Assembly (NCBI RefSeq): GCF_023015625.1
Contig: NZ_JALKAH010000005.1
Span: 248,001-312,000, forward strand
From: Yoonia sp. F2084L
Lineage (GTDB): Bacteria; Pseudomonadota; Alphaproteobacteria; Rhodobacterales; Rhodobacteraceae
Length of the DNA: 64,000 nt
Direction: 5' to 3'
Under the pieces are notes generated by a model. The model searched no databases. It saw nothing but the letters and a program-made list of their open reading frames with translations, and was not told the DNA's origin. A program made the position numbers and the translations under genes. Shown here piece by piece: positions 1 to 13,103 of the stretch (positions are counted from its first letter, which is position 1; every line of letters starts with the position of its first letter).

Positions 1-699
1 TTTGCCGGAACCCTGACACCAGAAGCGATGAGCACGCAGCGCCCGATTGATCAGATTATTGAAGGTAGCATCCGCTGGTCCATCGACACACAAGAGCTGA
101 TCGCAGCACTGATGCTGGAACCGTTTGGCGATCTGGTTGACGGGCTGACGGATTGTATGGCCACGCCCTTTGTGCCCGAACTCGACCCGACGATGGCTTG
201 CTGCGACCTGAAGGCGTTGATTAGCACTGATTGGGCGTGGGCTTGCGATGTGGATTACGACGCGCCAGAGGAATGCGCGCAGTTTTGGTACGTATCCGAG
301 GAAAAACTCGAACCCCGCCTTGGCAACAGGCACGCAGAGCCGGGGGCTGATCGTGAATCACCATTGGATATCGGGCGGCAGGTCAAAGCGCTGTCCCTTG
401 ACGTGCCCGATGATATCACACCGATCGGCCAATTCCTTGCTCAGCATCCCCAGCACCGGGCCGCGACCCGGCGGGTGCAAACCATGCAAAGGCACCCTTA
501 CGCCGAAATCCGCGATAACCTGATCAGTGAAACCTGCCTGCCCATCGACATTCTGCGCTGCAAGCTCGCGTTCTTTGGGGCTGCGAAGTTTGACCCAAAG
601 TCAGACCGCTGGACCCGGATCACCTTGGCCCAAGGTGCGCCACTTTTTGATGAATTGGACAACGCGGACGATTGGTGGCTGCCAGTGGCCAGCATCTGA
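1..699 (+). CDS. Hypothetical protein, 5' end outside window
   Basis: The reading frame is open to the window edge, so the true start may lie upstream; the first ATG inside is at 28, giving 223 residues. I recognise no family. The protein is rich in Asp, Trp and Cys (for example the DWAWACDVDYD stretch near residue 67) and has no signal peptide or membrane segment in the visible part, so it is probably cytosolic. Its stop overlaps the start of the next gene as TGATG, which suggests translational coupling with the DUF3726 protein and a joint role. Function unknown. Confidence 0.6.
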   Translation, partial: FAGTLTPEAMSTQRPIDQIIEGSIRWSIDTQELIAALMLEPFGDLVDGLTDCMATPFVPELDPTMACCDLKALISTDWAWACDVDYDAPEECAQFWYVSEEKLEPRLGNRHAEPGADRESPLDIGRQVKALSLDVPDDITPIGQFLAQHPQHRAATRRVQTMQRHPYAEIRDNLISETCLPIDILRCKLAFFGAAKFDPKSDRWTRITLAQGAPLFDELDNADDWWLPVASI

Positions 700-1217
700 T
701 GTGGGCGCTGAATGAAGTTGAAGGGTTGGTGAAAAAGGCCGCGCGTGGGGCAGGCTTTCCGACAGGCCAAGCCGAAGACCTTGGGCGCGTTGCGGCCTAT
801 CTGGCAGGCACCGGCGCGTCCGTGCAGCCAATTACGATGGCCTTGCAGGAACGGTTGAGCCAAGTTGATGTCAGATGGGCCGAGGGCTGTGTCGAAGTCC
901 AGCAGGGACCTGCCGCCTTGATCGGCCCCATCATCCGGGACGCTTTTGCGATGGGCTGCACAACTGCTGTGCTGACCGATATCAGGCATGCACCTTTAGT
1001 CGGTGCGTTTCTGGCAGAGAACGGTGTTGCGCAAAAATGGGACGGACCCGTTGTGACACGCAGCGATACGACCGTCCTGAAAGCGGCCTGCGGCCCGGTG
1101 ACAATACCCGGCCATGACTGGCAAATCTGGCTGGATTTGGCTGCAAAGACTTATGTCCCCGAAACCGATGCGTCGCGGATCGCCGGGGCAGGTGCGGGTC
1201 TTACAGACAACGACTAG
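699..1217 (+). CDS. DUF3726 family protein
   Basis: The N-terminus (MWALNEVEGLVKKAARGAGF) matches the conserved opening of DUF3726 proteins: an N-E pair, then a K-A-A-R-G-x-G block. The ATG at 699 is preferred over an upstream in-frame start at 672 because it begins exactly at this conserved motif and overlaps the stop of the preceding gene (TGATG). The product is 172 residues without signal peptide or membrane segments. The family is widespread in Rhodobacterales and has no established function. It is convergent with the response-regulator gene, with only 10 bases between their ends. Confidence 0.75.
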   Translation: MWALNEVEGLVKKAARGAGFPTGQAEDLGRVAAYLAGTGASVQPITMALQERLSQVDVRWAEGCVEVQQGPAALIGPIIRDAFAMGCTTAVLTDIRHAPLVGAFLAENGVAQKWDGPVVTRSDTTVLKAACGPVTIPGHDWQIWLDLAAKTYVPETDASRIAGAGAGLTDND

Positions 1218-1227
1218 GGTCAGGACC

Positions 1228-1899
1228 CTAGGACATCCGGTAGCCCACATTTCGCAACGTTACGATCCTTGCTCCTTCGGGGCCGATCTTGCGGCGAAGG
1301 CGGCCAACATAGACGTCCACAACATTGGTTAACGGATCAGCGTTGAGGCCCCAAACGACGTTTAGGATACGTTCGCGAGACAGGACGCGCCCGTTGTTTG
1401 TCAGGAATAGTAAAAGCAAATCACGCTCTTTTTTTGACAGTTCGATCTCTTGGTCCTCCACGGAAACCTGTAGGGACGCACGGTCGAAGGTGAGCGCGCC
1501 GCTGGTGATGAGTGTCTCACTGACGTCTGTTTCGTACCCTTTTGCGCGTCGGTGGAGCGCCTCGACGCGCGCAATCAATTCATCAAAGTCGAACGGTTTC
1601 GTCAGATAATCATCAGCACCCATCTTGAGGCCGCTGACCTTTTCTTCGGGACTATCGAGGGCAGTCAGCATCAGGATGGGTGTCGTTGACTTGCGCGCAC
1701 GCAGTTTCCGGCACACATCCTGACCCTGAATGCCGGGCAACATCAGATCAAGTAAGATCACATCGTAGCTATTGACTGCCGCGTGTTCGAGTGCATCTTC
1801 GCCGTCGCCGACATGATCCACGGACCAACCTTCTGCCGCCAATCCACGGCGGATAAAATCGGCCACGCGCGTCTCGTCTTCGACGAGTAAGATATTCAT
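1228..1899 (-). CDS. OmpR/PhoB-family response regulator
   Basis: A 223-residue two-domain regulator. The receiver domain (about 1-115) has the acidic pair E7/D8, phosphoacceptor D51 in the LLDLMLPG strand and K101 in the YLTKPF motif. The C-terminal half (about 130-223) is an OmpR-type winged helix ending in the RRKIG and VGYRM signature. It lies 115 bases downstream of the histidine kinase gene on the same strand, so the two form a cognate pair. OmpR-family proteins bind tandem half-sites about 11 bp apart, and such boxes occur upstream of three genes in this block (6273, 6838 and 6982), which are its likely targets. The signal is unknown. Confidence 0.93.
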   Translation of the reverse strand: MNILLVEDETRVADFIRRGLAAEGWSVDHVGDGEDALEHAAVNSYDVILLDLMLPGIQGQDVCRKLRARKSTTPILMLTALDSPEEKVSGLKMGADDYLTKPFDFDELIARVEALHRRAKGYETDVSETLITSGALTFDRASLQVSVEDQEIELSKKERDLLLLFLTNNGRVLSRERILNVVWGLNADPLTNVVDVYVGRLRRKIGPEGARIVTLRNVGYRMS

Positions 1900-2014
1900 T
1901 TGCGACGGCTCCCATTGCTAAGTCAGGAAGGGATCTTAGCCCCGATTTATCAGGTAAGACACTTTTCTTGAGTTTACGTTGGCTTTACAAACCAGAGTTT
2001 CTGACAGTTTCTTG

Positions 2015-3583
2015 CTATTTTGCTGGTGCGACCATCTTAACGTGCGGCTCGCTTGGGATGGTAATGATCGCCCGCAGTCCGCTTTCGCTCCTATCCTCTA
2101 ATGCGACTGTGCCGCCATGCGCTTCGACGATTGATTTGACGACCGGAAGACCAAGTCCATTACCCTCGATGCCCTGACCCGATGCATTCGAGCCGCGAAA
2201 AAAGCGCTCAAACGCTTGCGATTTTTCGGCGTCGTTCAGGCCGGGCCCATTGTCTTCGACCGCGATGATGTAAGATGTCGTATTTTGCTGCACCGAGGCA
2301 GTTATCATCGGTCCGCCATAGCGCCGGGCATTTTGCAAAAGCGCCAGAACGGACTGCCGCAGGCGTACTTCGTCTATGCTGGCGGTCACCGGTTCGTCGG
2401 GTTCATAAATAATGACCGAGCTTGGAAACATTGATGCAGCGTCACGTATGACTTTGCGTAGATCAATGTCTTTGCGGTCAAGCCGCAGCTGGCCGGCTTC
2501 GTAACGCGCGACAGTCAACATATCGTCAACGATTTGGTTCGTATGCTTGGCTGAATCGCGGATTCGCGCGAAAGCATCCGACACGTCCTCGCTGAGGTTT
2601 GTCGAGGTGCGCAGCGTGACTTCTGCCTCACCCAGGATAATTGCAAGCGGTGTGCGCAACTCATGGCTGATGTCGGCCATCAGTTGTTTGCGGTTCTCTT
2701 CGCCGTTTTCAAGCTTGTAGACCAGTTGCTGAAGCTCATTGGTGCGCGCTTCAACCGTGTCCTCAAGGTGTTTCTTCTGCTCCGCACGGGTGGCTTCACG
2801 GGCAGCAAGGCCCTCGCTCATACTGTTCAGCACGGTGCCGAGTTCGCGGAATTCCCGACTGCCACCAAGGTGGACAGCTTCAGAGTAATCTGCATCGCGC
2901 AGCCGGTGAAAGCCTTGTTGCAACTGGATGATCGGCTTGCGTATCTGCTCGTTGAAAGACACACCACCCACAATCACCGTTGCCCCTGCACCCAGCAAGA
3001 TCATGTAAACCAGTTGTTCGTTCCAGGCGCGAAAAGCTGATGCCTCGGCGAGTACTTCTTCGGTTTCCTCGCGCTCTTCGGCAAGTGCGGCTGCGATTTT
3101 GCGGTCAAGCTCTTCGTCGATATCGCCATCAAGAAGTGCCGCCAAACGCTCGATCTGAATGAAGGTATCAATCGGGTCGCCTGATGCCGTCAATGTCGCG
3201 ATGGCGTCATCGACAAACCTGATGTCAGCTTCGATTGTATCAAGCAGTTCGAGCTCTTCAATTTCTTCTTCACCGACCATCAGGATTTCGCGACCGATGA
3301 CATTGCGAATATCGGCAAGGTTCTGTGCGATCGCGTCACGTAATTCGCTTTCCAATGCCCCCCCATCACGGTCACCGATCAGCAAGGCATCGCCGCGCTG
3401 CTTGAACAGACGATACAGGTTCGATTCCAATCGCTGGTGGAGGCTGAAGGATTCTTGTGCCAGTTGCGTCCGGGCATCCCACCAGCGTGCTTTGTCGAGA
3501 CTATAAAGGGTCATCCCGGCAAAGCCGCCGATCAAGCCAACAATAACCACCGCATAGATGCCAAAAAGGGTTGTAGAACGCAT
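2015..3583 (-). CDS. HAMP-containing sensor histidine kinase
   Basis: A 522-residue membrane kinase. TM1 spans about residues 8-28, followed by a very acidic helical extracytoplasmic region (about 30-188, with Glu-rich runs near 105-120 and 169-180) and TM2 at about 191-210. HAMP and coiled-coil segments follow (about 212-300). HisKA carries H307 in SHELRTP; the ATPase domain has the N box near N418, the DNGPGL box at 444 and the GNGLGL box at 475. The start lies two bases after the stop of the ABC-like gene upstream, so both are in one transcript. The acidic sensor region could respond to cations; that is inference only. Confidence 0.93.
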   Translation of the reverse strand: MRSTTLFGIYAVVIVGLIGGFAGMTLYSLDKARWWDARTQLAQESFSLHQRLESNLYRLFKQRGDALLIGDRDGGALESELRDAIAQNLADIRNVIGREILMVGEEEIEELELLDTIEADIRFVDDAIATLTASGDPIDTFIQIERLAALLDGDIDEELDRKIAAALAEEREETEEVLAEASAFRAWNEQLVYMILLGAGATVIVGGVSFNEQIRKPIIQLQQGFHRLRDADYSEAVHLGGSREFRELGTVLNSMSEGLAAREATRAEQKKHLEDTVEARTNELQQLVYKLENGEENRKQLMADISHELRTPLAIILGEAEVTLRTSTNLSEDVSDAFARIRDSAKHTNQIVDDMLTVARYEAGQLRLDRKDIDLRKVIRDAASMFPSSVIIYEPDEPVTASIDEVRLRQSVLALLQNARRYGGPMITASVQQNTTSYIIAVEDNGPGLNDAEKSQAFERFFRGSNASGQGIEGNGLGLPVVKSIVEAHGGTVALEDRSESGLRAIITIPSEPHVKMVAPAK

Positions 3584-3584
3584 G

Positions 3585-5114
3585 TTAGAGAGCCTTTTCG
3601 TTGTCTAGTGCAATAGTAGAGGAAACTGCCGTTTGCGCTATGATGATTGTTGCCGGAGTCATCCCGCGCAGGGTTTCGATTAAGCTGTTTTGATCAGGCT
3701 CTGCCGACCAGCGCGACGATGCAATCACGATCACATCGCATTTGCCTAACACGACACGTGCAAGCTCAAGCCGCAGCGATTGAGCGGCCGTCAGGCCTTT
3801 GCCGTTCTCTGACATCCGTTGGTCCAGGCCCTGTGGTGCGCTTAGCAGTGTTTCAAGACCGAATGCGGTCAAGGTCTGGGCGATGCGTTTGTCAGTTGGG
3901 CGTTTCCGGCTCATCAAGGTTGCAGACCGCCGTAAACTGCCTTGCAGACCCAGATGATCGTCACCGATATGGGCGATCCTTGGTCGCTGTGCCTGGCCAT
4001 CAAAGCGGACATCGACGCTGTTGCTTGCATCAAGCCCCGCGATAAGTCGGGCAAGCGTGTGGCTTGAAGCGCCGGTCAGTTTGGTGACTTCACCACGGTT
4101 TGCGTCGACCTTTACTGGCTTGCCTCGATACATCCCGGTGAGCGTCACCGAAACGGGTCCAGCCTTTGACCGCGACCGCCGCCTCATGACCGGTTCGTTC
4201 AAAAGCCGTTGGGCCTTTTCGCGCGCAACACGCCATGCGCAATACTTGTCCCATGCAGACCCAAGGTCCTGCATCGGCATGGCGATAAGCGCCAAAACAG
4301 ACAGGCTCGCAGCGACCGTGGCCGGTGCAATGCCATTACGGCTGGCCAGCCACAGCATTGTCAGACCCGAGAGCGCTACCCCAATTTGCAAAATCGCTTG
4401 AAGCCCTGCGGTCCGGCCCCGGCGGGCGACGGCATCATCACGGAGCGACGCGCCTTGTCCGTCCAATGCGCGCAATTCCCGGCTCGTCCGGCCCATCAGA
4501 TCAAGATCGGGGGCGATGGCGATACGTTCGATCATTGCAATCGCGATACTGGCGCGGCGGTGGCGCAATTTGCGGTGACGACGCTCCAAATGCCAGGCGG
4601 CCAGCACCATGACCACAAGGGCAGCGCCTAGTGGTATCAGGCCTGCGGTCGCAAGGGTAGGATCAAGGGCAAACAGGATCGCAACAGCAGCGGGCAGGAC
4701 CACTGACGCAGACAGCACGTCTGGCAAACCACGCCCGAACCATAACCGGGCAGCGGACAGATCACCGACAAATCGCAAAGACAATGCCCCGACACGACGT
4801 TCATCGTGGCGCGATTTTGGCAGCCTTGCAATCTGCTTATATAACGCATGGCGCAAGGCTATTGCATAGCTTTGTCCAAGGCTTTCAGCGCGCCGTCGCG
4901 ATAGCAGCAAGCAGATCGCGGCGACAATGCCTGCCGCTGCCAGTGCAAGCATCGTGTGTATCGCAAGCCCGCCGCCAGTATGCAGTGCCGCGAACGCATC
5001 TCGTGTGGCAAACGCACAGACAGCAAGAGCTGCTGCCTGCGCGATGCCACACGACACGACGAGGACCGCGTCAATGACGCGGTCCCTTGTAGCCAGAGTT
5101 GGGGAAGTACTCAT
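3585..5114 (-). CDS. ABC-exporter-like protein with degenerate ATPase domain
   Basis: The 509-residue protein has the layout of a half ABC exporter (CydC/CydD-like): several hydrophobic segments in residues 12-285, then a nucleotide-binding-like domain (about 320-505). Every catalytic motif has decayed. The Walker A position reads LTGASSHTL (346-354) with no Gly-Lys-Ser/Thr; the signature reads LTAAQ (441-445) instead of LSGGQ; Walker B is VIVIASS (461-467) without Asp-Glu; the H-loop is IIAQ (491-494) without His. The frame is intact over 1.5 kb, so this looks like a maintained pseudo-ATPase rather than a pseudogene. Start ATG overlaps the upstream stop by four bases. It may act as a sensor partner or scaffold for the adjacent kinase. 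Confidence 0.8.
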   Translation of the reverse strand: MSTSPTLATRDRVIDAVLVVSCGIAQAAALAVCAFATRDAFAALHTGGGLAIHTMLALAAAGIVAAICLLLSRRRAESLGQSYAIALRHALYKQIARLPKSRHDERRVGALSLRFVGDLSAARLWFGRGLPDVLSASVVLPAAVAILFALDPTLATAGLIPLGAALVVMVLAAWHLERRHRKLRHRRASIAIAMIERIAIAPDLDLMGRTSRELRALDGQGASLRDDAVARRGRTAGLQAILQIGVALSGLTMLWLASRNGIAPATVAASLSVLALIAMPMQDLGSAWDKYCAWRVAREKAQRLLNEPVMRRRSRSKAGPVSVTLTGMYRGKPVKVDANRGEVTKLTGASSHTLARLIAGLDASNSVDVRFDGQAQRPRIAHIGDDHLGLQGSLRRSATLMSRKRPTDKRIAQTLTAFGLETLLSAPQGLDQRMSENGKGLTAAQSLRLELARVVLGKCDVIVIASSRWSAEPDQNSLIETLRGMTPATIIIAQTAVSSTIALDNEKAL

Positions 5115-6175
5115 GCGGCTACGTCGTTGGTTTCCCGACGCATCAGCGGTGCAACATGCTGCATGATGGTGTCAGGGGATCGAAGGTCTTCGCGCGATAC
5201 GATTGGCAAATCGGTCGCTTCGGCAGCTTCGGCTGCCGCAAGCGGCGAGCAGCTGACCATGCCAGAGATCGCGAAGGGTGACAGACCGACCTGCTCAAGC
5301 ACCAACTTGCCGCCCAAAGCGCTGAGCGCATCTGGTGCTGCAAAAAGGATGCCGTCCAGCCGGTCGCGGATGGTTGATGACCTGAGGATCGCGCGGGTTT
5401 CCTGCTGGAACACCCCGTCAGCAATTTCGACCACGACAATTTCGGCGCCTCGTACGGCGGCTGTTGCCACAAGCGTGTCAAAGCCTGCCTCGATCTGCTC
5501 CATCGGCATCCGGTATGTTGTCGGCATACCGACGTCGGTGAAATCCAGTGCCGGCGCGCCGCCATCTTCAAAGCTGTTAAAGTCACCAAATGCACCGGTG
5601 CCTGTCGCCTTGACGCCTGCAACTGAATAACCGGCGCGGATCAGCCCGTGCGCAAGACTGGAGGCCGCTGTCGTTTTGCCCGAATTCATAGAGGCCCCAA
5701 AGACCCCGATCACGGTCACGTGGTCATTTGCGGGAAGCTGCGGCAAAACATAATCTGCTATGTTCATGATCTTGCCATGTTCACCGACCAAAAGGCCGAT
5801 TGGCTTCAGTCGGGTCGGCTCGGAAATGCGGACATGCGATGCATCAATGCGACCCGCTATACCGCCGCCTGCGACGAGGTCGATCAGATCATCGTCAATC
5901 ACAGCGCTGGCGAGGAACTGGTCAGGGGCATATCGGTCGCCAATGCATAGAACGACCAAGTCGCCGGGGTAGCTTTCTGAGGCACGGCGCTCGGCGAGTT
6001 GAATTTTCTTATGTTGTCCGATCTCGGCGATTTGGCACAGGATCAGGTCACCGGCTTTTGCGGCATCATAGTTTGTAGATAGATCGCGGACATCGCAACG
6101 ATCAACGCGACGGGTTGTAAAGGCCCACTTGGCAGTTGTGCAAAGTGTGGCGCTCAGCGGGGTCATCGTGGTCAT
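5111..6175 (-). CDS. P-loop NTPase of unknown role
   Basis: This 354-residue protein has an intact Walker A motif, GASMNSGKTT (160-169), followed by an AxSLAHGLIRAGY helix as in the MobB/dethiobiotin-synthetase/DUF1611 group. Later stretches such as VKATGTGAFGD and EIVVVEIADGVFQQ fit the same fold. An N-terminal domain of about 150 residues is not recognised. No signal peptide is visible, so it is probably cytosolic. It heads the operon P-loop protein, pseudo-ABC, kinase, regulator: the next gene overlaps it by four bases. A tandem TCAT box lies 97 bases upstream of its start. The substrate is unknown. Confidence 0.75.
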   Translation of the reverse strand: MTTMTPLSATLCTTAKWAFTTRRVDRCDVRDLSTNYDAAKAGDLILCQIAEIGQHKKIQLAERRASESYPGDLVVLCIGDRYAPDQFLASAVIDDDLIDLVAGGGIAGRIDASHVRISEPTRLKPIGLLVGEHGKIMNIADYVLPQLPANDHVTVIGVFGASMNSGKTTAASSLAHGLIRAGYSVAGVKATGTGAFGDFNSFEDGGAPALDFTDVGMPTTYRMPMEQIEAGFDTLVATAAVRGAEIVVVEIADGVFQQETRAILRSSTIRDRLDGILFAAPDALSALGGKLVLEQVGLSPFAISGMVSCSPLAAAEAAEATDLPIVSREDLRSPDTIMQHVAPLMRRETNDVAA

Positions 6176-6272
6176 TGGTCTACTCCTGGTTCAGACAATT
6201 GTGATGACCCCCTTTTGACAGCTGCACCTGACTGTTTTCCGGCAGACTGATGAACGTCTTTTGGACGGATGA

Positions 6273-6289
6273 ATGAATGTCACATGAAC
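6273..6289 (-). promoter_or_regulatory. Putative response-regulator box, P-loop operon promoter
   Basis: On the coding strand of the downstream operon the site reads GTTCAT-N5-ATTCAT, two six-base half-sites spaced 11 bp, the geometry used by OmpR/PhoB regulators. Its gene-proximal edge is 97 bases from the start codon at 6175. A further GTTCAT lies 18 bases nearer the gene (6250-6255). The same arrangement recurs before the EF-hand gene and the DUF4956 gene. Confidence 0.5.
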
Positions 6290-6334
6290 GCATAAGTATC
6301 TGCTTTTCGTGATTGCCATTGCCGCAAAGGCACC

Positions 6335-6736
<402 letters not shown>

Positions 6737-6837
6737 TCTACTCCCTCCTTACTTTGGGCAATTGATAAACGGTCTAAAATCTTTTTGTTCGAAGGGTGAA
6801 ACTAGCGGTCATAGATGACAGCTGTCCTGTCATAGAA

Positions 6838-6854
6838 ATGAACATCAGATGAAC
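6838..6854 (-). promoter_or_regulatory. Putative response-regulator box, EF-hand promoter
   Basis: On the coding strand the site reads GTTCAT-N5-GTTCAT, a perfect direct repeat with 11-bp spacing. It is 101 bases upstream of the EF-hand TTG start at 6736 and in the same orientation relative to its gene as the box before the P-loop operon. The flanking gcGTTCAT is also shared between the two sites. Confidence 0.5.
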
Positions 6855-6981
6855 GCGAAGGTTCTGCATGACCCAAGGCTGATGGCGCGGCGCAGATCGG
6901 GGCACCGCTGATACAACAAGGCTGATCCAGAGATATAGTGAGGGCGTGATCCGGGGCGTGCATGTCGCGCGCAAGTCAAAC

Positions 6982-6998
6982 TGTCATCTTTTGTTCAT
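6982..6998 (+). promoter_or_regulatory. Putative response-regulator box, DUF4956/VTC promoter
   Basis: The plus strand reads TGTCAT-N5-GTTCAT, 11-bp spacing, facing the DUF4956 gene. The first half-site is imperfect. If translation starts at the ATG at 7098 the box lies 99 bases upstream, the same distance as for the other two boxes. The rest of the 6737-7097 intergenic stretch shows no further gene. Confidence 0.4.
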
Positions 6999-7097
6999 AA
7001 AAGTGTTACGCGCCCTTCACCGGCCATGCAGGCCGCTGCCATTTCTTCCTGCCATCCCTTTCATCAAATGCTGGCCATCGTGGCAGCGAAGATTGGA

Positions 7098-7682
7098 ATG
7101 GATGGAGCAATGCTGGAAGATCTTTTTACAAGCGGAGTAATTGAACGTTTCTTACTGAACGTCATCGCGATGACGTGCCTGATTTTTGGCCTTTTCTATA
7201 GTCGGTATCGCGACAAGGAACTTGTCACCGCAGCGTCGCTCTTCAACATTTTTGCTTTCGGGGTTCTGACGATCCTTGGCTCGGTTGAGTTTTCGCTGGC
7301 CGCCGGTTTCGGCCTGTTCGCGATCCTTGCCCTTTTCACTCTACGCTCAGAACAGATCAGTAAAATCGAGATCACCTACTTCTTTGGTTCTATCGCCATC
7401 GCAGTGGTTTGTTCCGTGCAAGGCACCACAATGCCGTTTGTGATCGTCGTTGTCGGGTTTGTTTTGATCGGAGCCTATGTTTTCGACCATCCGCGCATTC
7501 TGAAGTCTGTCGATGGCATCAAGATCACTCTCGATAAGATCGACCCCGACGCCCTGTCCGACCCCGCAAAGATGCGCACAGACCTGTCCGAAAGGCTGGG
7601 TGTTGAGGTCATGACCTATCAGATTATCGCGCTGAACTACATCACCGACATGGCGCAGATCAACGTCTTCTATCGCAAATAA
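7098..7682 (+). CDS. DUF4956 membrane protein, VTC partner
   Basis: An integral membrane protein with about four hydrophobic segments in its first two thirds, followed by a soluble tail (from about YVFDHPRILKSVDG). Sequence and neighbourhood match DUF4956, a family usually encoded directly before VTC-domain proteins, as here (23 bases apart). I place the start at 7098 (194 residues); the frame is open from an ATG at 7026, and 7110 is also possible. None has a convincing ribosome site, but 7098 puts the upstream TCAT box at the same distance as in the two sister promoters. It may form the membrane channel or anchor for a VTC-type polyphosphate polymerase; this is inferred from VTC complexes in general. 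Confidence 0.82.
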   Translation: MDGAMLEDLFTSGVIERFLLNVIAMTCLIFGLFYSRYRDKELVTAASLFNIFAFGVLTILGSVEFSLAAGFGLFAILALFTLRSEQISKIEITYFFGSIAIAVVCSVQGTTMPFVIVVVGFVLIGAYVFDHPRILKSVDGIKITLDKIDPDALSDPAKMRTDLSERLGVEVMTYQIIALNYITDMAQINVFYRK

Positions 7683-7705
7683 TCACGCAAGCTGAGGTAA
7701 GCATC

Positions 7706-8512
7706 ATGGACCATCGTATCGCTCAAAGCCTGTCGACATTTGACACGATCACATTAGAGGGCCTGAACGCAAAAGCGGCAATGCTGGAGCGGCTGGATAA
7801 CAAATACATTGTACCTGCGGATCGCCTTCTTCCTGCGTTCAATGCCTTTGCCGATCATTTCGATGTTCTTGAGATCGACGGCAAAAAGTCGTTCATCTAC
7901 GCGACCGAGTATCATGACGATGCGGCTGCACAATCCTACTTTGACCATCATCAGGGCCGGCGCAAACGCTGCAAAGTACGGGTGCGAAACTATGTCGACG
8001 CTGGATTCAGTTACCTTGAGGTCAAGCTTAAGGACCTGCGGAATGTCACAGTGAAGAAACGGCTCAAGCTGGATCAAACCTCTGCTGGTCTATCGCCCGA
8101 AGCATTGGCATTTATTGATGATTGTCACACTGAAATGTACGGCACACCCCTTGGTCGCAATTTGCAGCCTGTGCTAAAGATGCGCTACGCACGGATCACG
8201 CTTGTCGCCAAGGATGGTGGCGAACGCATGACGATTGACACCAATCTTAGCTTCCGCACGAAAGCGCTGGAACGTCACGCCGCACCCGACCACTTCATTC
8301 TTGAAACGAAATCGGCACGGGGCAACGGCTTGGCGGATAGTATTCTGCGCGGTCAGCAGATGCATCCCACCAAGCAGTGTTCAAAGTTCTGCATGGGAAT
8401 GGCCGCACTTGGCGTGGTCGAGCGGCACAATCGGTTCCTGCCAGCGCTGAGAAAGCTGCAAGTCTTCGAGCAACCCTTGCTGCAACGCGATGGGCTTTCA
8501 GCTGCGGCATAG
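7706..8512 (+). CDS. VTC-domain polyphosphate polymerase-like protein
   Basis: A 268-residue soluble VTC (triphosphate-tunnel) domain. The tunnel residues expected for the family are visible: ERLDNKY with K33, the CKVRVRNY strand (K90, R92, R94), YLEVKLK (E105, K107, K109), K118-R119, R160, the ETK motif (E200, K202) and the final K223/K227 around a CSKFCMG turn. Eukaryotic VTC catalytic subunits make polyphosphate from ATP, and bacterial members are predicted to act similarly. No membrane anchor is present, so association with the DUF4956 protein is likely. The adjoining acidic Ca-binding protein suggests a role in polyphosphate or mineral handling (inference). Confidence 0.88.
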   Translation: MDHRIAQSLSTFDTITLEGLNAKAAMLERLDNKYIVPADRLLPAFNAFADHFDVLEIDGKKSFIYATEYHDDAAAQSYFDHHQGRRKRCKVRVRNYVDAGFSYLEVKLKDLRNVTVKKRLKLDQTSAGLSPEALAFIDDCHTEMYGTPLGRNLQPVLKMRYARITLVAKDGGERMTIDTNLSFRTKALERHAAPDHFILETKSARGNGLADSILRGQQMHPTKQCSKFCMGMAALGVVERHNRFLPALRKLQVFEQPLLQRDGLSAAA

Positions 8513-8581
8513 AATTACATGGGTCGGTACATAACAGGCACAGGTAGCGCCTTCTAACAGCGACGCTCAACAAGCGAAGTT

Positions 8582-8658
8582 TGGTGACCCCGATTGGATT
8601 CGAACCAATAACCTGCCCCTTAGGAGGGGGCTGCTCTATCCAGTTGAGCCACGGGGCC
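8582..8658 (-). tRNA. tRNA-Arg (anticodon CCT)
   Basis: The minus strand folds into a 77-nt cloverleaf including an encoded CCA end. The acceptor stem GGCCCCG pairs with CGGGGTC (one G-U), the anticodon stem is GCCCC/GGGGC and the loop CTCCTAA presents CCT, which reads the rare AGG Arg codon. The T arm has the canonical GGTTCGAATCC loop. It stands alone and no att repeat or integrase is seen beside it. Confidence 0.97.
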
Positions 8659-8770
8659 GTTTGCCAAGACGGAATGCCTGTGTTTGCCTTTGCGGTCAAC
8701 GGTCATGCGGAACTGGCTTTTGTGGCAAAGCCCCGCTAACAATAAGAAAACGACGGACGGGACCCTTCCT

Positions 8771-9793
8771 TTGACCAATACACCCAAGCGCCCTTTGACC
8801 CTGCGTGATGTCTCTGAGGCATCCGGGGTCAGCGAAATGACTGTCAGCCGCGTGTTGCGTAACAAAGGCGATGTCAGTGCGGCGACCCGCCAAAAGGTCC
8901 AAGATGCGGCGAAACGCCTGGGCTATGTGCCAAATAAAATCGCGGGTGCTTTGGCGTCGCAACGGGTCAATCTGGTCGCGGTCATCATTCCATCGTTGGG
9001 GAATATGGTGTTTCCCGAGGTGCTTTCGGGGATTTCTGAGACGCTGGAGGACACCGGATTGCAGCCGGTTGTTGGCGTGACGGATTACTTGCCTGAGAAA
9101 GAAGAGAAGGTCCTGTTTGAGATGCTGTCATGGCGCCCATCTGGGGTGATCATTGCAGGCTTAGAGCATTCCGAAGCTTCACAGGCGATGTTGCAGCAGG
9201 CCGGCATTCCGGTGGTTGAGATTATGGATACCGATGGTGAGCCGATTGACCACTGCGTCGGGATTTCGCATCGCCGCGCGGGGCGCAAAATGGCGGAAGA
9301 GATTATCGCGGCTGGTTACAAGCGTATCGGGTTTATGGGCACCAAGATGCCTTTGGATCACCGCGCCCGCAAGCGGTTCGAAGGGTTTACCCGTACTCTT
9401 GCCAAAGCCGGGATCGAGATTGCGGATCAGGAATTCTATTCGGGTGGATCCGCCCTTGCCAAAGGCCGCGAAATGACCGCGAAGATGTTGGAACGCACCC
9501 CTGATCTGGATTTTCTTTACTACTCAAACGACATGATTGGAGCCGGTGGTCTGCTTTATTTACTTGAGCAGGGCATTGACGTGCCGGGCAAGGTTGGTCT
9601 GGCTGGGTTCAATGGCGTTGAACTGCTTGATGGTCTGCCGCGCCAATTGGCAACGATGGATGCATGTCGGCGTGATATTGGTGTGAAAGCTGCACAGATT
9701 ATTGCGGCGCTGAATGCGGGCGATGCTGTGCCTGACGGCCCTATTGTAGCGCTTGATCCGACATTGGCTGCGGGCGATACACTGCGTCGCTGA
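8771..9793 (+). CDS. LacI/GntR-type transcriptional repressor
   Basis: The N-terminus has the LacI helix-turn-helix (TLRDVSEASGVSEMTVSRVL) and hinge helix (YVPNKIAGALASQ), followed by a periplasmic-binding-protein-like effector domain beginning at VNLVAVIIPSLGN. It most resembles gluconate-type (GntR) repressors. The frame is open from an ATG at 8684, but I prefer the TTG at 8771: it gives 340 residues, the family norm, starts close to the helix-turn-helix and has a GGACGGGA sequence eight bases upstream. The regulated sugar genes are not in the window. An intrinsic terminator follows at once. Confidence 0.88.
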   Translation: MTNTPKRPLTLRDVSEASGVSEMTVSRVLRNKGDVSAATRQKVQDAAKRLGYVPNKIAGALASQRVNLVAVIIPSLGNMVFPEVLSGISETLEDTGLQPVVGVTDYLPEKEEKVLFEMLSWRPSGVIIAGLEHSEASQAMLQQAGIPVVEIMDTDGEPIDHCVGISHRRAGRKMAEEIIAAGYKRIGFMGTKMPLDHRARKRFEGFTRTLAKAGIEIADQEFYSGGSALAKGREMTAKMLERTPDLDFLYYSNDMIGAGGLLYLLEQGIDVPGKVGLAGFNGVELLDGLPRQLATMDACRRDIGVKAAQIIAALNAGDAVPDGPIVALDPTLAAGDTLRR

Positions 9794-11522: not shown

Positions 11523-13103
11523 TTACGCAGGTGACTTGATCCAAACTTCAACGCGGCGGTTGATGCGGCGACCTTCGTCGCTGGTGTTGCAACCAGAAGG
11601 TGCGATCTCACCGAAGCCGACTGAGGAAACCGTAATGTCTGCTACACGGTCTCCACCTGAATTGCGCAGCTCATTTGCAACTTGCGCTGCACGTTGCTGT
11701 GACAAGGCCAGGTTGCCATCGAATTGGCCGACGTCATCGGTAAAGCCCACCATCAACAACTCTGTTCCCGCTGGCTGGGTTTCAAGATATTCAATCAGAC
11801 GCTGTTTGTCGATCAGACCACGTTCATCCAACTGGGCAGAACCCGTACGAAAGCGGAATGTTGTCGACAGGCGATCAAAGTCAGCCATCTGGGCCAGCAT
11901 CTGACGCATGAAGCCACCCTCATAAGCGTCGACGTCTTGGTTCAGAAGAGCACGTGCACGGTCACCGTCGAGCGGTTGCTCGCGACGGTCAACAGCAAAA
12001 CCGATAAAGCCCGCCTTACCAATCAGGCTGTCTGCTTCGTCAGATGTAGCATACGTGACGAAATCACGTGTTTTATCACTTGCGGTGTCTTCACGTGTGT
12101 AAAGATAAAGGCGACGCTGAAGCGCATATTCTTCTGTACGTGCCGAGAACGCATTGGGCTGCATTGAGATTCCGCATTCGTTGACAATGCTCAGCGCATT
12201 TGCACCACGTTGGAAAGCATAACCGACGTAGCCGACAGCGCCTTCTGTTTGGTTAACGATCTGCGAAACGTCGCCGTTAGATTCTGCCACAATAGTTCCA
12301 GGCGCGTCAGATGTGTTGGCATCCCCAAAGATACGGTCTTCAAAGACATCGCGTGTACCAGAGCCTTCGGGACGGCTTACCACGGTGATTGCAAGGTCAG
12401 GACCACCCACTTGTGACCAGTTCGTGATTTGGCCGTTATAGATCTGCTGGACCTGCTGGGTTGTCAAAGAGTCGATTGGGTTTGCAGGGTTTGTCACCAG
12501 CACAAGGCTGTCGACCGCAATAATGTGTTCTTGGGCCGGGTTCACCATGTTGCCGGCACCGTCGTTGCGCAATGCACGCGCTTCGGCTGGCTGGATACGG
12601 CGCGATGACATGCTAATATCTGTCTGGCGCTCCAGTAGTTTTGCAAAACCGTCGGATGAACCTGACGATGTGACCAGGATCGAGGCAAGATCTTCACCAA
12701 AGCCCTGATCACCGATCAGTTCTGCAACGATGTCGTCGCCATTGCCGGTGTTCACAAGATCGGCGGCTGCGTCGATTGAACCTGCATAGCCTTCCAGTAG
12801 AAGTGGCATCAGACCCAGACCGACGGTGTCTGACCCTGCAATCGTGATGTCAACTTCGCCACCACCAAGTTCGGGACATGCAGCACCTTCGCAGTTTACC
12901 CGGCTTGCGGAGACGCGAAGTTCGCCTAGCGCGGTTGCAATAATATATGCGTTATCGCGAAAATCTACAAAGTCGCCAGTCATGTTCACTGTGCCGTCGC
13001 TTGATGTCAGCGTGACCTCTTGCGCGAATGCAAAGTTCGAAAGCGACAAGCTCCCTACCAGTGTCAGCATGCCTAACGCCGTGCTATTCCACTTTTTCGT
13101 CAT
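11523..13103 (-). CDS. PstS-like binding domain fused to OmpA domain
   Basis: A 526-residue exported protein with signal peptide cleaved near AFAQ (27-28). A small beta-rich domain (about 29-85) precedes a PstS-type phosphate-binding domain (about 88-370) with the typical GSDTVG entry, the TDISMSSR and VSRPEGSGTRDVF motifs and the VGYVGYAF strand. The C-terminus (about 405-526) is an OmpA/Pal peptidoglycan-binding domain: FRTGSAQLDERG, VGFTDDVG, LSQQRAAQVANEL and GRRINRRVEVW. The fusion would place a phosphate-binding module on the cell wall. No pstCAB genes are present nearby, so it is not obviously a transport component; sensing or scavenging is possible. Confidence 0.87.
   Translation of the reverse strand: MTKKWNSTALGMLTLVGSLSLSNFAFAQEVTLTSSDGTVNMTGDFVDFRDNAYIIATALGELRVSASRVNCEGAACPELGGGEVDITIAGSDTVGLGLMPLLLEGYAGSIDAAADLVNTGNGDDIVAELIGDQGFGEDLASILVTSSGSSDGFAKLLERQTDISMSSRRIQPAEARALRNDGAGNMVNPAQEHIIAVDSLVLVTNPANPIDSLTTQQVQQIYNGQITNWSQVGGPDLAITVVSRPEGSGTRDVFEDRIFGDANTSDAPGTIVAESNGDVSQIVNQTEGAVGYVGYAFQRGANALSIVNECGISMQPNAFSARTEEYALQRRLYLYTREDTASDKTRDFVTYATSDEADSLIGKAGFIGFAVDRREQPLDGDRARALLNQDVDAYEGGFMRQMLAQMADFDRLSTTFRFRTGSAQLDERGLIDKQRLIEYLETQPAGTELLMVGFTDDVGQFDGNLALSQQRAAQVANELRNSGGDRVADITVSSVGFGEIAPSGCNTSDEGRRINRRVEVWIKSPA

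What the first reader, a model, noticed from the sequence alone, without database searches (positions are those of the whole stretch)
1228..8512. Candidate new system: two-component pair, pseudo-ABC protein, P-loop protein, EF-hand/poly-Asp protein and DUF4956/VTC pair
Seven adjacent genes look functionally linked. DUF4956/VTC pairs are a known but poorly described module. Here the pair adjoins a secreted EF-hand protein with 22 terminal Asp, and an operon joining a P-loop NTPase, a catalytically dead ABC exporter, an acidic-sensor histidine kinase and its regulator. The shared promoter boxes (next finding) tie the parts into one regulon. A reasonable hypothesis is a calcium- or cation-sensing circuit controlling VTC-type polyphosphate synthesis and an acidic Ca-binding exoprotein, perhaps for mineral or phosphate handling. 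That function is inference.
Basis: partly seen in the sequence, partly recalled or inferred. Interest (0 to 1): 0.75.

Follow-up and report, generated by a model that had tools for sequence, protein, structure and literature searches.

The report
Sensor-controlled poly-aspartate and polyphosphate gene cluster
This is a real, conserved bacterial gene cluster, not described in the papers I could search, in which an acidic membrane sensor and its regulator seem to control, through one shared DNA box, a nucleotide-binding protein, a disabled transporter, an exported aspartate-rich EF-hand protein and a likely polyphosphate-making pair; what it does for the cell is still inferred.

Summary
The seven genes are real and as described. 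Starting from the P-loop gene I collected 79 loci: ABC found in 74, kinase in 60, regulator in 58. A box GTTCAT-N5-GTTCAT lies ~110 bp upstream of the P-loop gene and also upstream of the EF-hand gene, and tracks the presence of kinase/regulator. A variant (TGTCAT-N5-KTTCATAA) precedes DUF4956; in 20 genomes searched it occurred only at such loci. In 9 of 11 P-loop genomes with VTC, VTC sits at this locus, in several arrangements. So the linkage holds, but DUF4956/VTC is optional cargo: 29 of 40 P-loop genomes tested lack it.

The core is P-loop–ABC–kinase–regulator. The P-loop protein is a SIMIBI-type NTPase with an N-terminal beta-rich domain and intact Walker A. The ABC protein keeps exporter fold and purifying selection but lost its ATPase motifs in this clade; intact motifs mostly go with a nearby Asp/Asn hydroxylase or alpha/beta hydrolase. 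Asp-rich exported proteins (EF-hand or subtilase type) recur beside the core.

Best reading: an autoregulated, cation- or polycation-responsive envelope regulon making polyanions (poly-Asp protein, polyphosphate). The regulon is well supported; signal, polyphosphate and calcium are inferred.

The parts
1228..1899 (-). OmpR-family response regulator (223 aa), presumed reader of the GTTCAT-N5-GTTCAT box
   Evidence: Pfam Response_reg + Trans_reg_C; below NCBIfam PhoB cut-off, 185.8 of 296.2 bits; found in 58 of 79 loci
2015..3583 (-). HAMP-containing sensor histidine kinase (522 aa) with acidic sensor
   Evidence: Pfam; acidic positions 105-110, 118, 152, 156, 170, 172, 173 conserved (83-100% of 59 sequences)
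3585..5114 (-). ABC exporter-like half transporter with degenerate nucleotide-binding domain (509 aa)
   Evidence: Walker A/B lost; exporter fold kept, pLDDT 87.7, best PDB match TmrAB TMq 0.83; dN/dS 0.07-0.14 (TM part), 0.16-0.34 (NBD)
5111..6175 (-). P-loop protein: N-terminal beta-rich domain + C-terminal SIMIBI-type NTPase (354 aa)
   Evidence: model pLDDT 93.3; PDB folds SRP54/FtsY/HypB match only part of it; weak profile match to dethiobiotin synthetase; Walker A intact in 59 of 59
6250..6289 (-). regulator boxes upstream of the P-loop operon; best GTTCATGTGACATTCAT at 6273-6289
   Evidence: 28 of 29 relatives have a site within 2 mismatches, 27 of them 110-115 bp upstream
6335..6736 (-). 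exported EF-hand protein with Asp-rich tail ending in 22 Asp (133 aa; TTG start uncertain; signal peptide judged by eye)
   Evidence: 23 sequences incl. the window all with Asp-rich tails
6338..6397 (.). (GTCATC)10 hexanucleotide repeat coding most of the Asp run
6838..6854 (-). exact regulator box GTTCATCTGATGTTCAT upstream of the EF-hand gene
6982..7000 (+). variant box TGTCATCTTTTGTTCATAA upstream of DUF4956
7026..7682 (+). DUF4956 membrane protein (218 aa as called; a later start is possible)
   Evidence: Pfam PF16316 146.9 bits
7706..8512 (+). VTC-domain protein, likely polyphosphate polymerase (268 aa)
   Evidence: Pfam PF09359 108.2 bits; K/R/E-rich strands invariant in 13 sequences

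Best explanation
An autoregulated envelope two-component regulon that raises polyanions at the cell surface. Shown by sequence: a core operon P-loop NTPase - ABC-like protein - kinase - regulator; a direct-repeat box in front of it and of the EF-hand/poly-Asp gene; a variant box in front of DUF4956/VTC; long conservation of this. Inferred: (1) the kinase reads divalent cations or cationic compounds through its conserved acidic sensor; (2) the phosphorylated regulator binds the boxes; (3) it induces its own operon, an exported EF-hand protein whose Asp-rich tail binds cations, and a DUF4956/VTC pair that makes polyphosphate from ATP and passes it through the membrane; (4) the P-loop NTPase and the ATPase-dead ABC protein form a membrane complex that acts as a nucleotide switch or scaffold for the kinase and no longer as an ATP-driven exporter.
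For: Core: ABC 74, kinase 60, regulator 58 of 79 loci. Box: a matrix from 37 sites outside the window gives the window's P-loop, EF and DUF4956 promoters p = 0.0002 each, the floor of 4000 random stretches (230-bp promoters against 200-bp stretches). Box within 2 mismatches upstream of P-loop in 50 of 60 loci with kinase or regulator, 1 of 16 without (76 of 79 loci scored). EF-carrying loci scanned: 19 of 19 have a site within 2 mismatches before EF. Exact box in 12 genomes: 32 sites against 2 for the reversed pattern; 17 of the 32 are P-loop or EF promoters (one search placed). Variant box: 10 sites in 20 genomes, 8 distinct since G399 and G458 are one genome; 7 lie before DUF4956, 1 before a transporter divergent from EF. 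VTC at the P-loop locus in 9 of 11. EF orthologues over 90 bits in 3 of 149 genomes, each beside the P-loop gene. Acidic sensor. Dead ABC under purifying selection, fold kept. In the one same-genus relative a second DUF4956/VTC copy again adjoins an EF/poly-Asp gene and a PHO4-family phosphate transporter; the core is single-copy there.
Against: No binding, expression or ligand data. The acidic sensor could read cationic peptides, metals or pH as well as calcium. 29 of 40 tested P-loop genomes lack VTC; DUF4956/VTC occurs in the family without the core. Of 10 genomes with DUF4956/VTC at the locus (own included) 4 lack the exact variant box. Ten of 60 loci with kinase or regulator show no box before P-loop. 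Seven of nine genomes tested, own included, also carry a PPK, so VTC is not the only polyphosphate route. EF-hand found in only 21 of 79 loci. The variant box shares its first half with a Pho box (recalled). Loci are related, so counts are not independent events.
Confidence: 0.42

Rival explanations
1. Phosphate-starvation cargo: DUF4956/VTC is driven by PhoB (or by both regulators) and is only parked beside an unrelated two-component operon.
For: The DUF4956 box begins with CTGTCAT in the window, like a Pho half-site (recalled); a second copy and one family relative adjoin PHO4-family transporters, the former also a phytase-like gene; a PBP_like_2/OmpA protein lies 3 kb from VTC.
Against: The exact variant was found in 20 genomes only at this kind of locus; I would expect a general Pho box at other phosphate genes too. 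Its second half is mostly of the local TTCAT type. Co-location in 9 of 11 genomes.
Confidence: 0.2
2. Remnant of an export/maturation system: ancestrally P-loop + active ABC + alpha/beta hydrolase + Asp/Asn hydroxylase handled an Asp-rich exoprotein or a small product; in this clade the enzymes were lost and the ABC decays, leaving a regulatory shell.
For: Intact ABC motifs in 18 of 19 loci with hydroxylase or hydrolase and 4 of 38 without (57 of 79 loci scored). Subtilase found in 19 loci, 17 of which hold an Asp-rich ORF.
Against: The ABC is still under purifying selection, so this is not plain decay; NBD dN is only about 1.7-3 times that of the TM part. That the enzyme-bearing state is ancestral was not tested by a tree.
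Confidence: 0.2
3. Specifically a calcium circuit controlling polyphosphate for mineral handling, as first proposed.
For: Two EF-hand loops; D9, D13, E20, D38, D42, E49 invariant in 23 sequences; acidic sensor.
Against: The EF-hand gene was not found in 58 of 79 loci, some of them short contigs; nothing shows that Ca2+ is the signal.
Confidence: 0.13
4. Chance neighbours with no common function.
For: VTC and P-loop co-occur in only 1 of 149 family genomes.
Against: Shared boxes and repeated co-location in different orders.
Confidence: 0.03

Closest known systems
DUF4956-CotH-VTC module (e.g. accessory genes of Gram-positive Pel clusters; PMC7112168, passages read)
   Same: DUF4956 and a polyphosphate polymerase side by side
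   Different: No CotH here; two-component pair, EF-hand/poly-Asp protein and P-loop/ABC core instead. Elsewhere in the class two loci have a Pfam CotH gene between or beside them (L145, L223) and two have a large gene there without any informative Pfam match (L146, L225)
Eukaryotic VTC complex (PMC9911596; title, start of abstract and one passage seen)
   Same: VTC/TTM domain; coupling of synthesis and translocation could be played by DUF4956 (inference)
   Different: No SPX domain seen; the membrane part would be DUF4956
Periplasmic EF-hand regulators: Caulobacter CaBP-SigV (PMC13171946, abstract and outline seen); Pseudomonas EfhP (PMC11559002, listing only)
   Same: Small exported EF-hand protein tied to an envelope regulator
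   Different: The abstracts mention no Asp tail, P-loop/ABC core or VTC
CydC/CydD and other type IV ABC exporters
   Same: Fold and TM part; nearest NCBIfam CydC 73.3 bits of cut-off 329; PDB TmrAB, MsbA, CydDC
   Different: ATPase motifs missing in the window's clade
SIMIBI NTPases: BioD, MobB, HypB, SRP54; DUF1611
   Same: C-terminal NTPase fold
   Different: N-terminal beta-rich domain; no Pfam family over cut-off

Membership tests
DUF4956-CotH-VTC module | DUF4956 gene adjacent to VTC gene | tested here: met
   23 bp apart
DUF4956-CotH-VTC module | CotH-type kinase in the operon | tested here: not met
   ten proteins of window 28-9793 scanned, none CotH
VTC polyphosphate polymerase | VTC domain over curated cut-off | tested here: met
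   108.2 bits, cut-off 23
VTC polyphosphate polymerase | basic tunnel residues of the active site | tested here: inconclusive
   K90/R92/R94, E105/K107/K109, R174, E200/K202 invariant in 13 sequences; mapping to yeast Vtc4 is recall; no PDB match was found
VTC polyphosphate polymerase | ATP-dependent polymerisation | not testable with these tools
   needs an assay
ABC exporter (active) | type IV exporter fold | tested here: met
ABC exporter (active) | Walker A and Walker B motifs | tested here: not met
OmpR-type two-component system | HisKA/HATPase kinase next to receiver + Trans_reg_C regulator | tested here: met
PhoB/PhoR | NCBIfam equivalog cut-off | tested here: not met
   regulator 185.8 of 296.2 bits; kinase 115.1 of 334.2
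DUF1611 | Pfam DUF1611 match | tested here: not met
   no match for the window protein; a cyanobacterial homologue 18.6 of 25 bits
EF-hand calcium-binding protein | EF-hand domain over cut-off and loop residues | tested here: met
EF-hand calcium-binding protein | binds Ca2+ | not testable with these tools
   needs an assay

The most novel reading that the evidence does not exclude
The P-loop NTPase and its ABC partner are the core of an undescribed system devoted to aspartate-tract exoproteins: ancestrally, with an Asp/Asn hydroxylase and an alpha/beta hydrolase, it modifies or handles Asp-rich exported proteins (subtilases, EF-hand proteins), and in the window's clade it has become a membrane signalling complex that couples an acidic kinase to poly-Asp and polyphosphate production.
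Probability: 0.17. Interest if true: 0.85.

Novelty: new variant of a known kind. Interest (0 to 1): 0.57.

Why it matters
It gives bacterial DUF4956/VTC, a pair with little literature (3 papers in the library mention DUF4956), a likely regulon and testable partners. It also shows an ATPase-dead ABC exporter kept by selection next to a SIMIBI NTPase with intact Walker A in every sequence aligned, and a recurring tie between that pair and aspartate-tract exported proteins. If the sensor reads cations, it would be a circuit in which a bacterium answers with polyanions of two chemistries.

Tried and rejected
Rejected: chance neighbours (boxes and repeated co-location). Rejected: the ABC as a pseudogene (dN/dS well below 1 in eight pairs). 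Rejected: anti-phage defence (PADLOC at E <= 0.001 matched only regulator and kinase, weakly; none for the other five proteins). Rejected: PhoB identity of the regulator. Not resolved: whether the variant box is read by the local regulator, PhoB or both; a two-mismatch scan for a plain Pho box in the own genome gave 30 sites against 8 for the reversed pattern, of which I looked at 6 and could not tell a set of true Pho boxes. Led nowhere: PDB sequence search with VTC; DUF1611 literature; poly-Asp and Roseobacter papers. In one search the DUF4956 comparisons are void (wrong frame in my coordinates) and not used. Extra regulon members: 15 of 32 exact sites lie off the P-loop and EF promoters, all 15 looked at; about five fall at the start of one recurring gene that I take by eye for a phosphoesterase and look like codon coincidence; citrate synthase (two related genomes), a subtilase and a PepSY-like protein (by eye) remain possible.
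Full report
Anatomy. On the minus strand lie P-loop (5111-6175), ABC-like (3585-5114, 4 bp overlap), kinase (2015-3583, 1 bp gap) and regulator (1228-1899, 115 bp gap); upstream of them, same strand, an EF-hand gene (6335-6736) whose product ends in 22 Asp; divergent from that, DUF4956 (7026-7682) and VTC (7706-8512). A tRNA-Arg lies at 8582-8658.

P-loop protein. No Pfam family over cut-off. Its model (45-sequence alignment, pLDDT 93.3) shows a beta-rich N-terminal domain and a C-terminal NTPase domain. The best PDB folds are SRP54/FtsY/HypB with TMq at most 0.40 among the 50 listed, so only the NTPase part is matched; a profile search gives dethiobiotin synthetase weakly (E 0.0005). Walker A is intact in 59 of 59 aligned sequences.

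ABC protein. An exporter half with the NBD fold retained but without GK[ST] and the Walker B acid. Selection still acts: dN/dS is 0.07-0.14 for the TM part (seven pairs; one pair saturated) and 0.16-0.34 for the NBD (eight pairs). Across loci, intact motifs go with an Asp/Asn hydroxylase or alpha/beta hydrolase nearby: 18 intact and 1 not with either, 4 intact and 34 not without (57 of 79 loci scored by a simple motif rule). The hydroxylase is Pfam PF05118 over cut-off; the hydrolase is just below (23.1 of 25.8 bits). These loci are related, so the Fisher value is only a guide.

Neighbourhood. One scan of genome contigs gave 79 loci, the best 80 of 114, from Rhodobacterales and other Alphaproteobacteria, Halomonas, Methyloversatilis, a cyanobacterium and MAGs labelled Acidimicrobiia, Nocardioidaceae and Anaerolineae. 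Components found: ABC 74, kinase 60, regulator 58, alpha/beta hydrolase 29, Asp/Asn hydroxylase 26, EF-hand 21, subtilase 19, ECF sigma 19, anti-sigma 17, DUF4956 10, VTC 9. Some loci are short contigs, so these are lower bounds. In an even sample of 149 genera of the family the P-loop gene is in 14 and VTC in 5; only the window genome has both. VTC is in 5 of 289 genomes of the class, own included.

Asp-rich exported proteins recur beside the core. An ORF with at least 10 Asp in 20 residues lies within 5 kb of the P-loop gene in 35 of 77 loci (791 kb); one lies in the remaining 642 kb. So 42 of the 77 show none at this threshold. They are of two main kinds: the EF-hand protein and a subtilase with an Asp-rich stretch just after what looks like its signal peptide; of 19 loci with a subtilase, 17 hold an Asp-rich ORF. 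All 23 EF sequences compared have an Asp-rich tail (28-67% Asp); 22 end in Asp, one in Asp-Gly. The pure 22-Asp run is the extreme and rests on a perfect hexanucleotide repeat. The EF core at over 90 bits occurs in 3 of 149 family genomes, each beside the P-loop gene; 15 others have weaker EF-hand matches of 50 bits or less.

Link to DUF4956/VTC. I searched 40 of the 79 loci's genomes, including all nine with VTC near the core: 11 have VTC, 9 at the P-loop locus, 2 only elsewhere. Of those two, G462 has a CotH-type operon (L223, CotH by Pfam) and G466 a DUF4956/VTC pair with no CotH seen and no Asp-rich ORF at threshold 9 (L224), which is a counter-example. Orders differ: divergent from EF (window, L039, L047, L060), after the regulator (L043, L048, L058), ahead of EF on the same strand (L053), between kinase and P-loop (L061), 6 kb off (L062). 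A contig of an incomplete genome (73%) carries subtilase-DUF4956-VTC-kinase-regulator, and no P-loop gene was found in that genome (L034). The same-genus relative has a second DUF4956/VTC copy beside another EF/poly-Asp gene, a PHO4-family transporter and a phytase-like gene; the contig ends about 150 bp after EF, but only one P-loop gene is found in that genome. Three family relatives with DUF4956/VTC and no core (L035-L037) have a LuxR-type response regulator within a few kb; two of the three have an Asp-rich ORF at threshold 9, one does not. In L092 (and by clustering L052) the divergent slot holds a CitMHS/Na_sulph_symp transporter and a glycerate kinase instead, so the slot seems exchangeable.

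Boxes. Of 29 loci of the nearer groups, 28 have GTTCAT-N5-GTTCAT within 2 mismatches before the P-loop gene, 27 of them at 110-115 bp; the exception, L064, has an exact box before its divergent kinase. All 19 EF-carrying loci in that list have a site within 2 mismatches before EF. A matrix from 37 sites outside the window scores the window's P-loop, EF and DUF4956 promoters at p = 0.0002 each, while its regulator, kinase and ABC starts score as background. Over 76 of 79 loci the box is there in 50 of 60 with kinase or regulator and 1 of 16 without; that one, L098, is a truncated contig. In 12 genomes the exact box occurs 32 times, the reversed pattern twice; 17 of the 32 are P-loop or EF promoters. 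In the own genome the exact box occurs twice: EF, and 172 bp before a protein-kinase gene; with one mismatch there are 18 more (reversed control 2 in all), many of them inside or far from gene starts. Before DUF4956 the site is a variant, TGTCAT-N5-KTTCATAA. I framed that pattern after seeing the sites, so its presence is not news, but its specificity is: 10 hits in 20 genomes, none for the reversed pattern, 8 distinct as G399 and G458 are one genome; 7 before DUF4956 and 1 before the transporter in L092. Of the 10 genomes with DUF4956/VTC at the locus (own included), 6 have the exact variant and 4 (L047, L053, L058, L061) do not. Its first half equals a Pho half-site (recalled), so PhoB input remains possible.

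Sensor. In 59 aligned kinases, positions 105-107, 109, 110, 118, 152, 156, 170, 172 and 173 are acidic in 86-100%. By analogy with PhoQ (recalled) this suggests divalent cations or cationic peptides. That is inference.

Mechanism. The regulon is well supported by sequence. The sensor signal, the poly-Asp protein as a cation binder, polyphosphate synthesis by VTC with passage through DUF4956, and the P-loop/ABC pair as a switch are inferences in falling order of support. PPK is present in 7 of 9 tested genomes, own included, so VTC would serve a special pool.

Known work. DUF4956 appears in 3 papers of the library; in Gram-positive Pel clusters it sits with CotH and a polyphosphate polymerase (PMC7112168, passages), and in Bacteroides thetaiotaomicron a DUF4956 gene is listed among iron-dependent genes (PMC10434189, one table passage). 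I found no description of the P-loop/ABC core; the searches were in an open-access library, none of which could name the core directly, so absence is weak evidence.

Noticed in passing
window 11523-13103: PBP_like_2 (phosphate-binding type) domain fused to a C-terminal OmpA domain (Pfam), about 3 kb from VTC.
   Followed up: partly
L147:2589-3911 (own genome C9): Protein-kinase (Pfam Pkinase) gene with an exact regulator box 172 bp upstream: possible further regulon member.
   Followed up: partly
L148:4284-8288 (own genome C8): DUF1800/DUF1501 gene pair with a one-mismatch box 70 bp upstream.
   Followed up: partly
L151; L175: Exact boxes before a PepSY-like Asn/Gly-rich protein (by eye; Ruegeria halocynthiae) and before a subtilase (Pfam; genome of L041, Tateyamaria).
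   Followed up: partly
L035, L036, L037: DUF4956/VTC without the core, near LuxR-type response regulators; in L036 followed by a PHO4-family phosphate transporter.
   Followed up: partly
L092:5936-8927; L052:6105-9146: CitMHS-type transporter plus glycerate kinase (Pfam for L092) occupy the slot that holds DUF4956/VTC in the window; by clustering the same pair is near L070, L073, L077, L078, L080, L114.
   Followed up: partly
L146:4094-6307; L225:4945-7203: DUF4956 and VTC genes flank a 737- or 752-aa gene without an informative Pfam match: perhaps a divergent CotH-like partner.
   Followed up: no
window 672-1217: DUF3726 protein convergent with the regulator gene; among the fetched loci tblastn found it only in the window genome's own stretch.
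   Followed up: no
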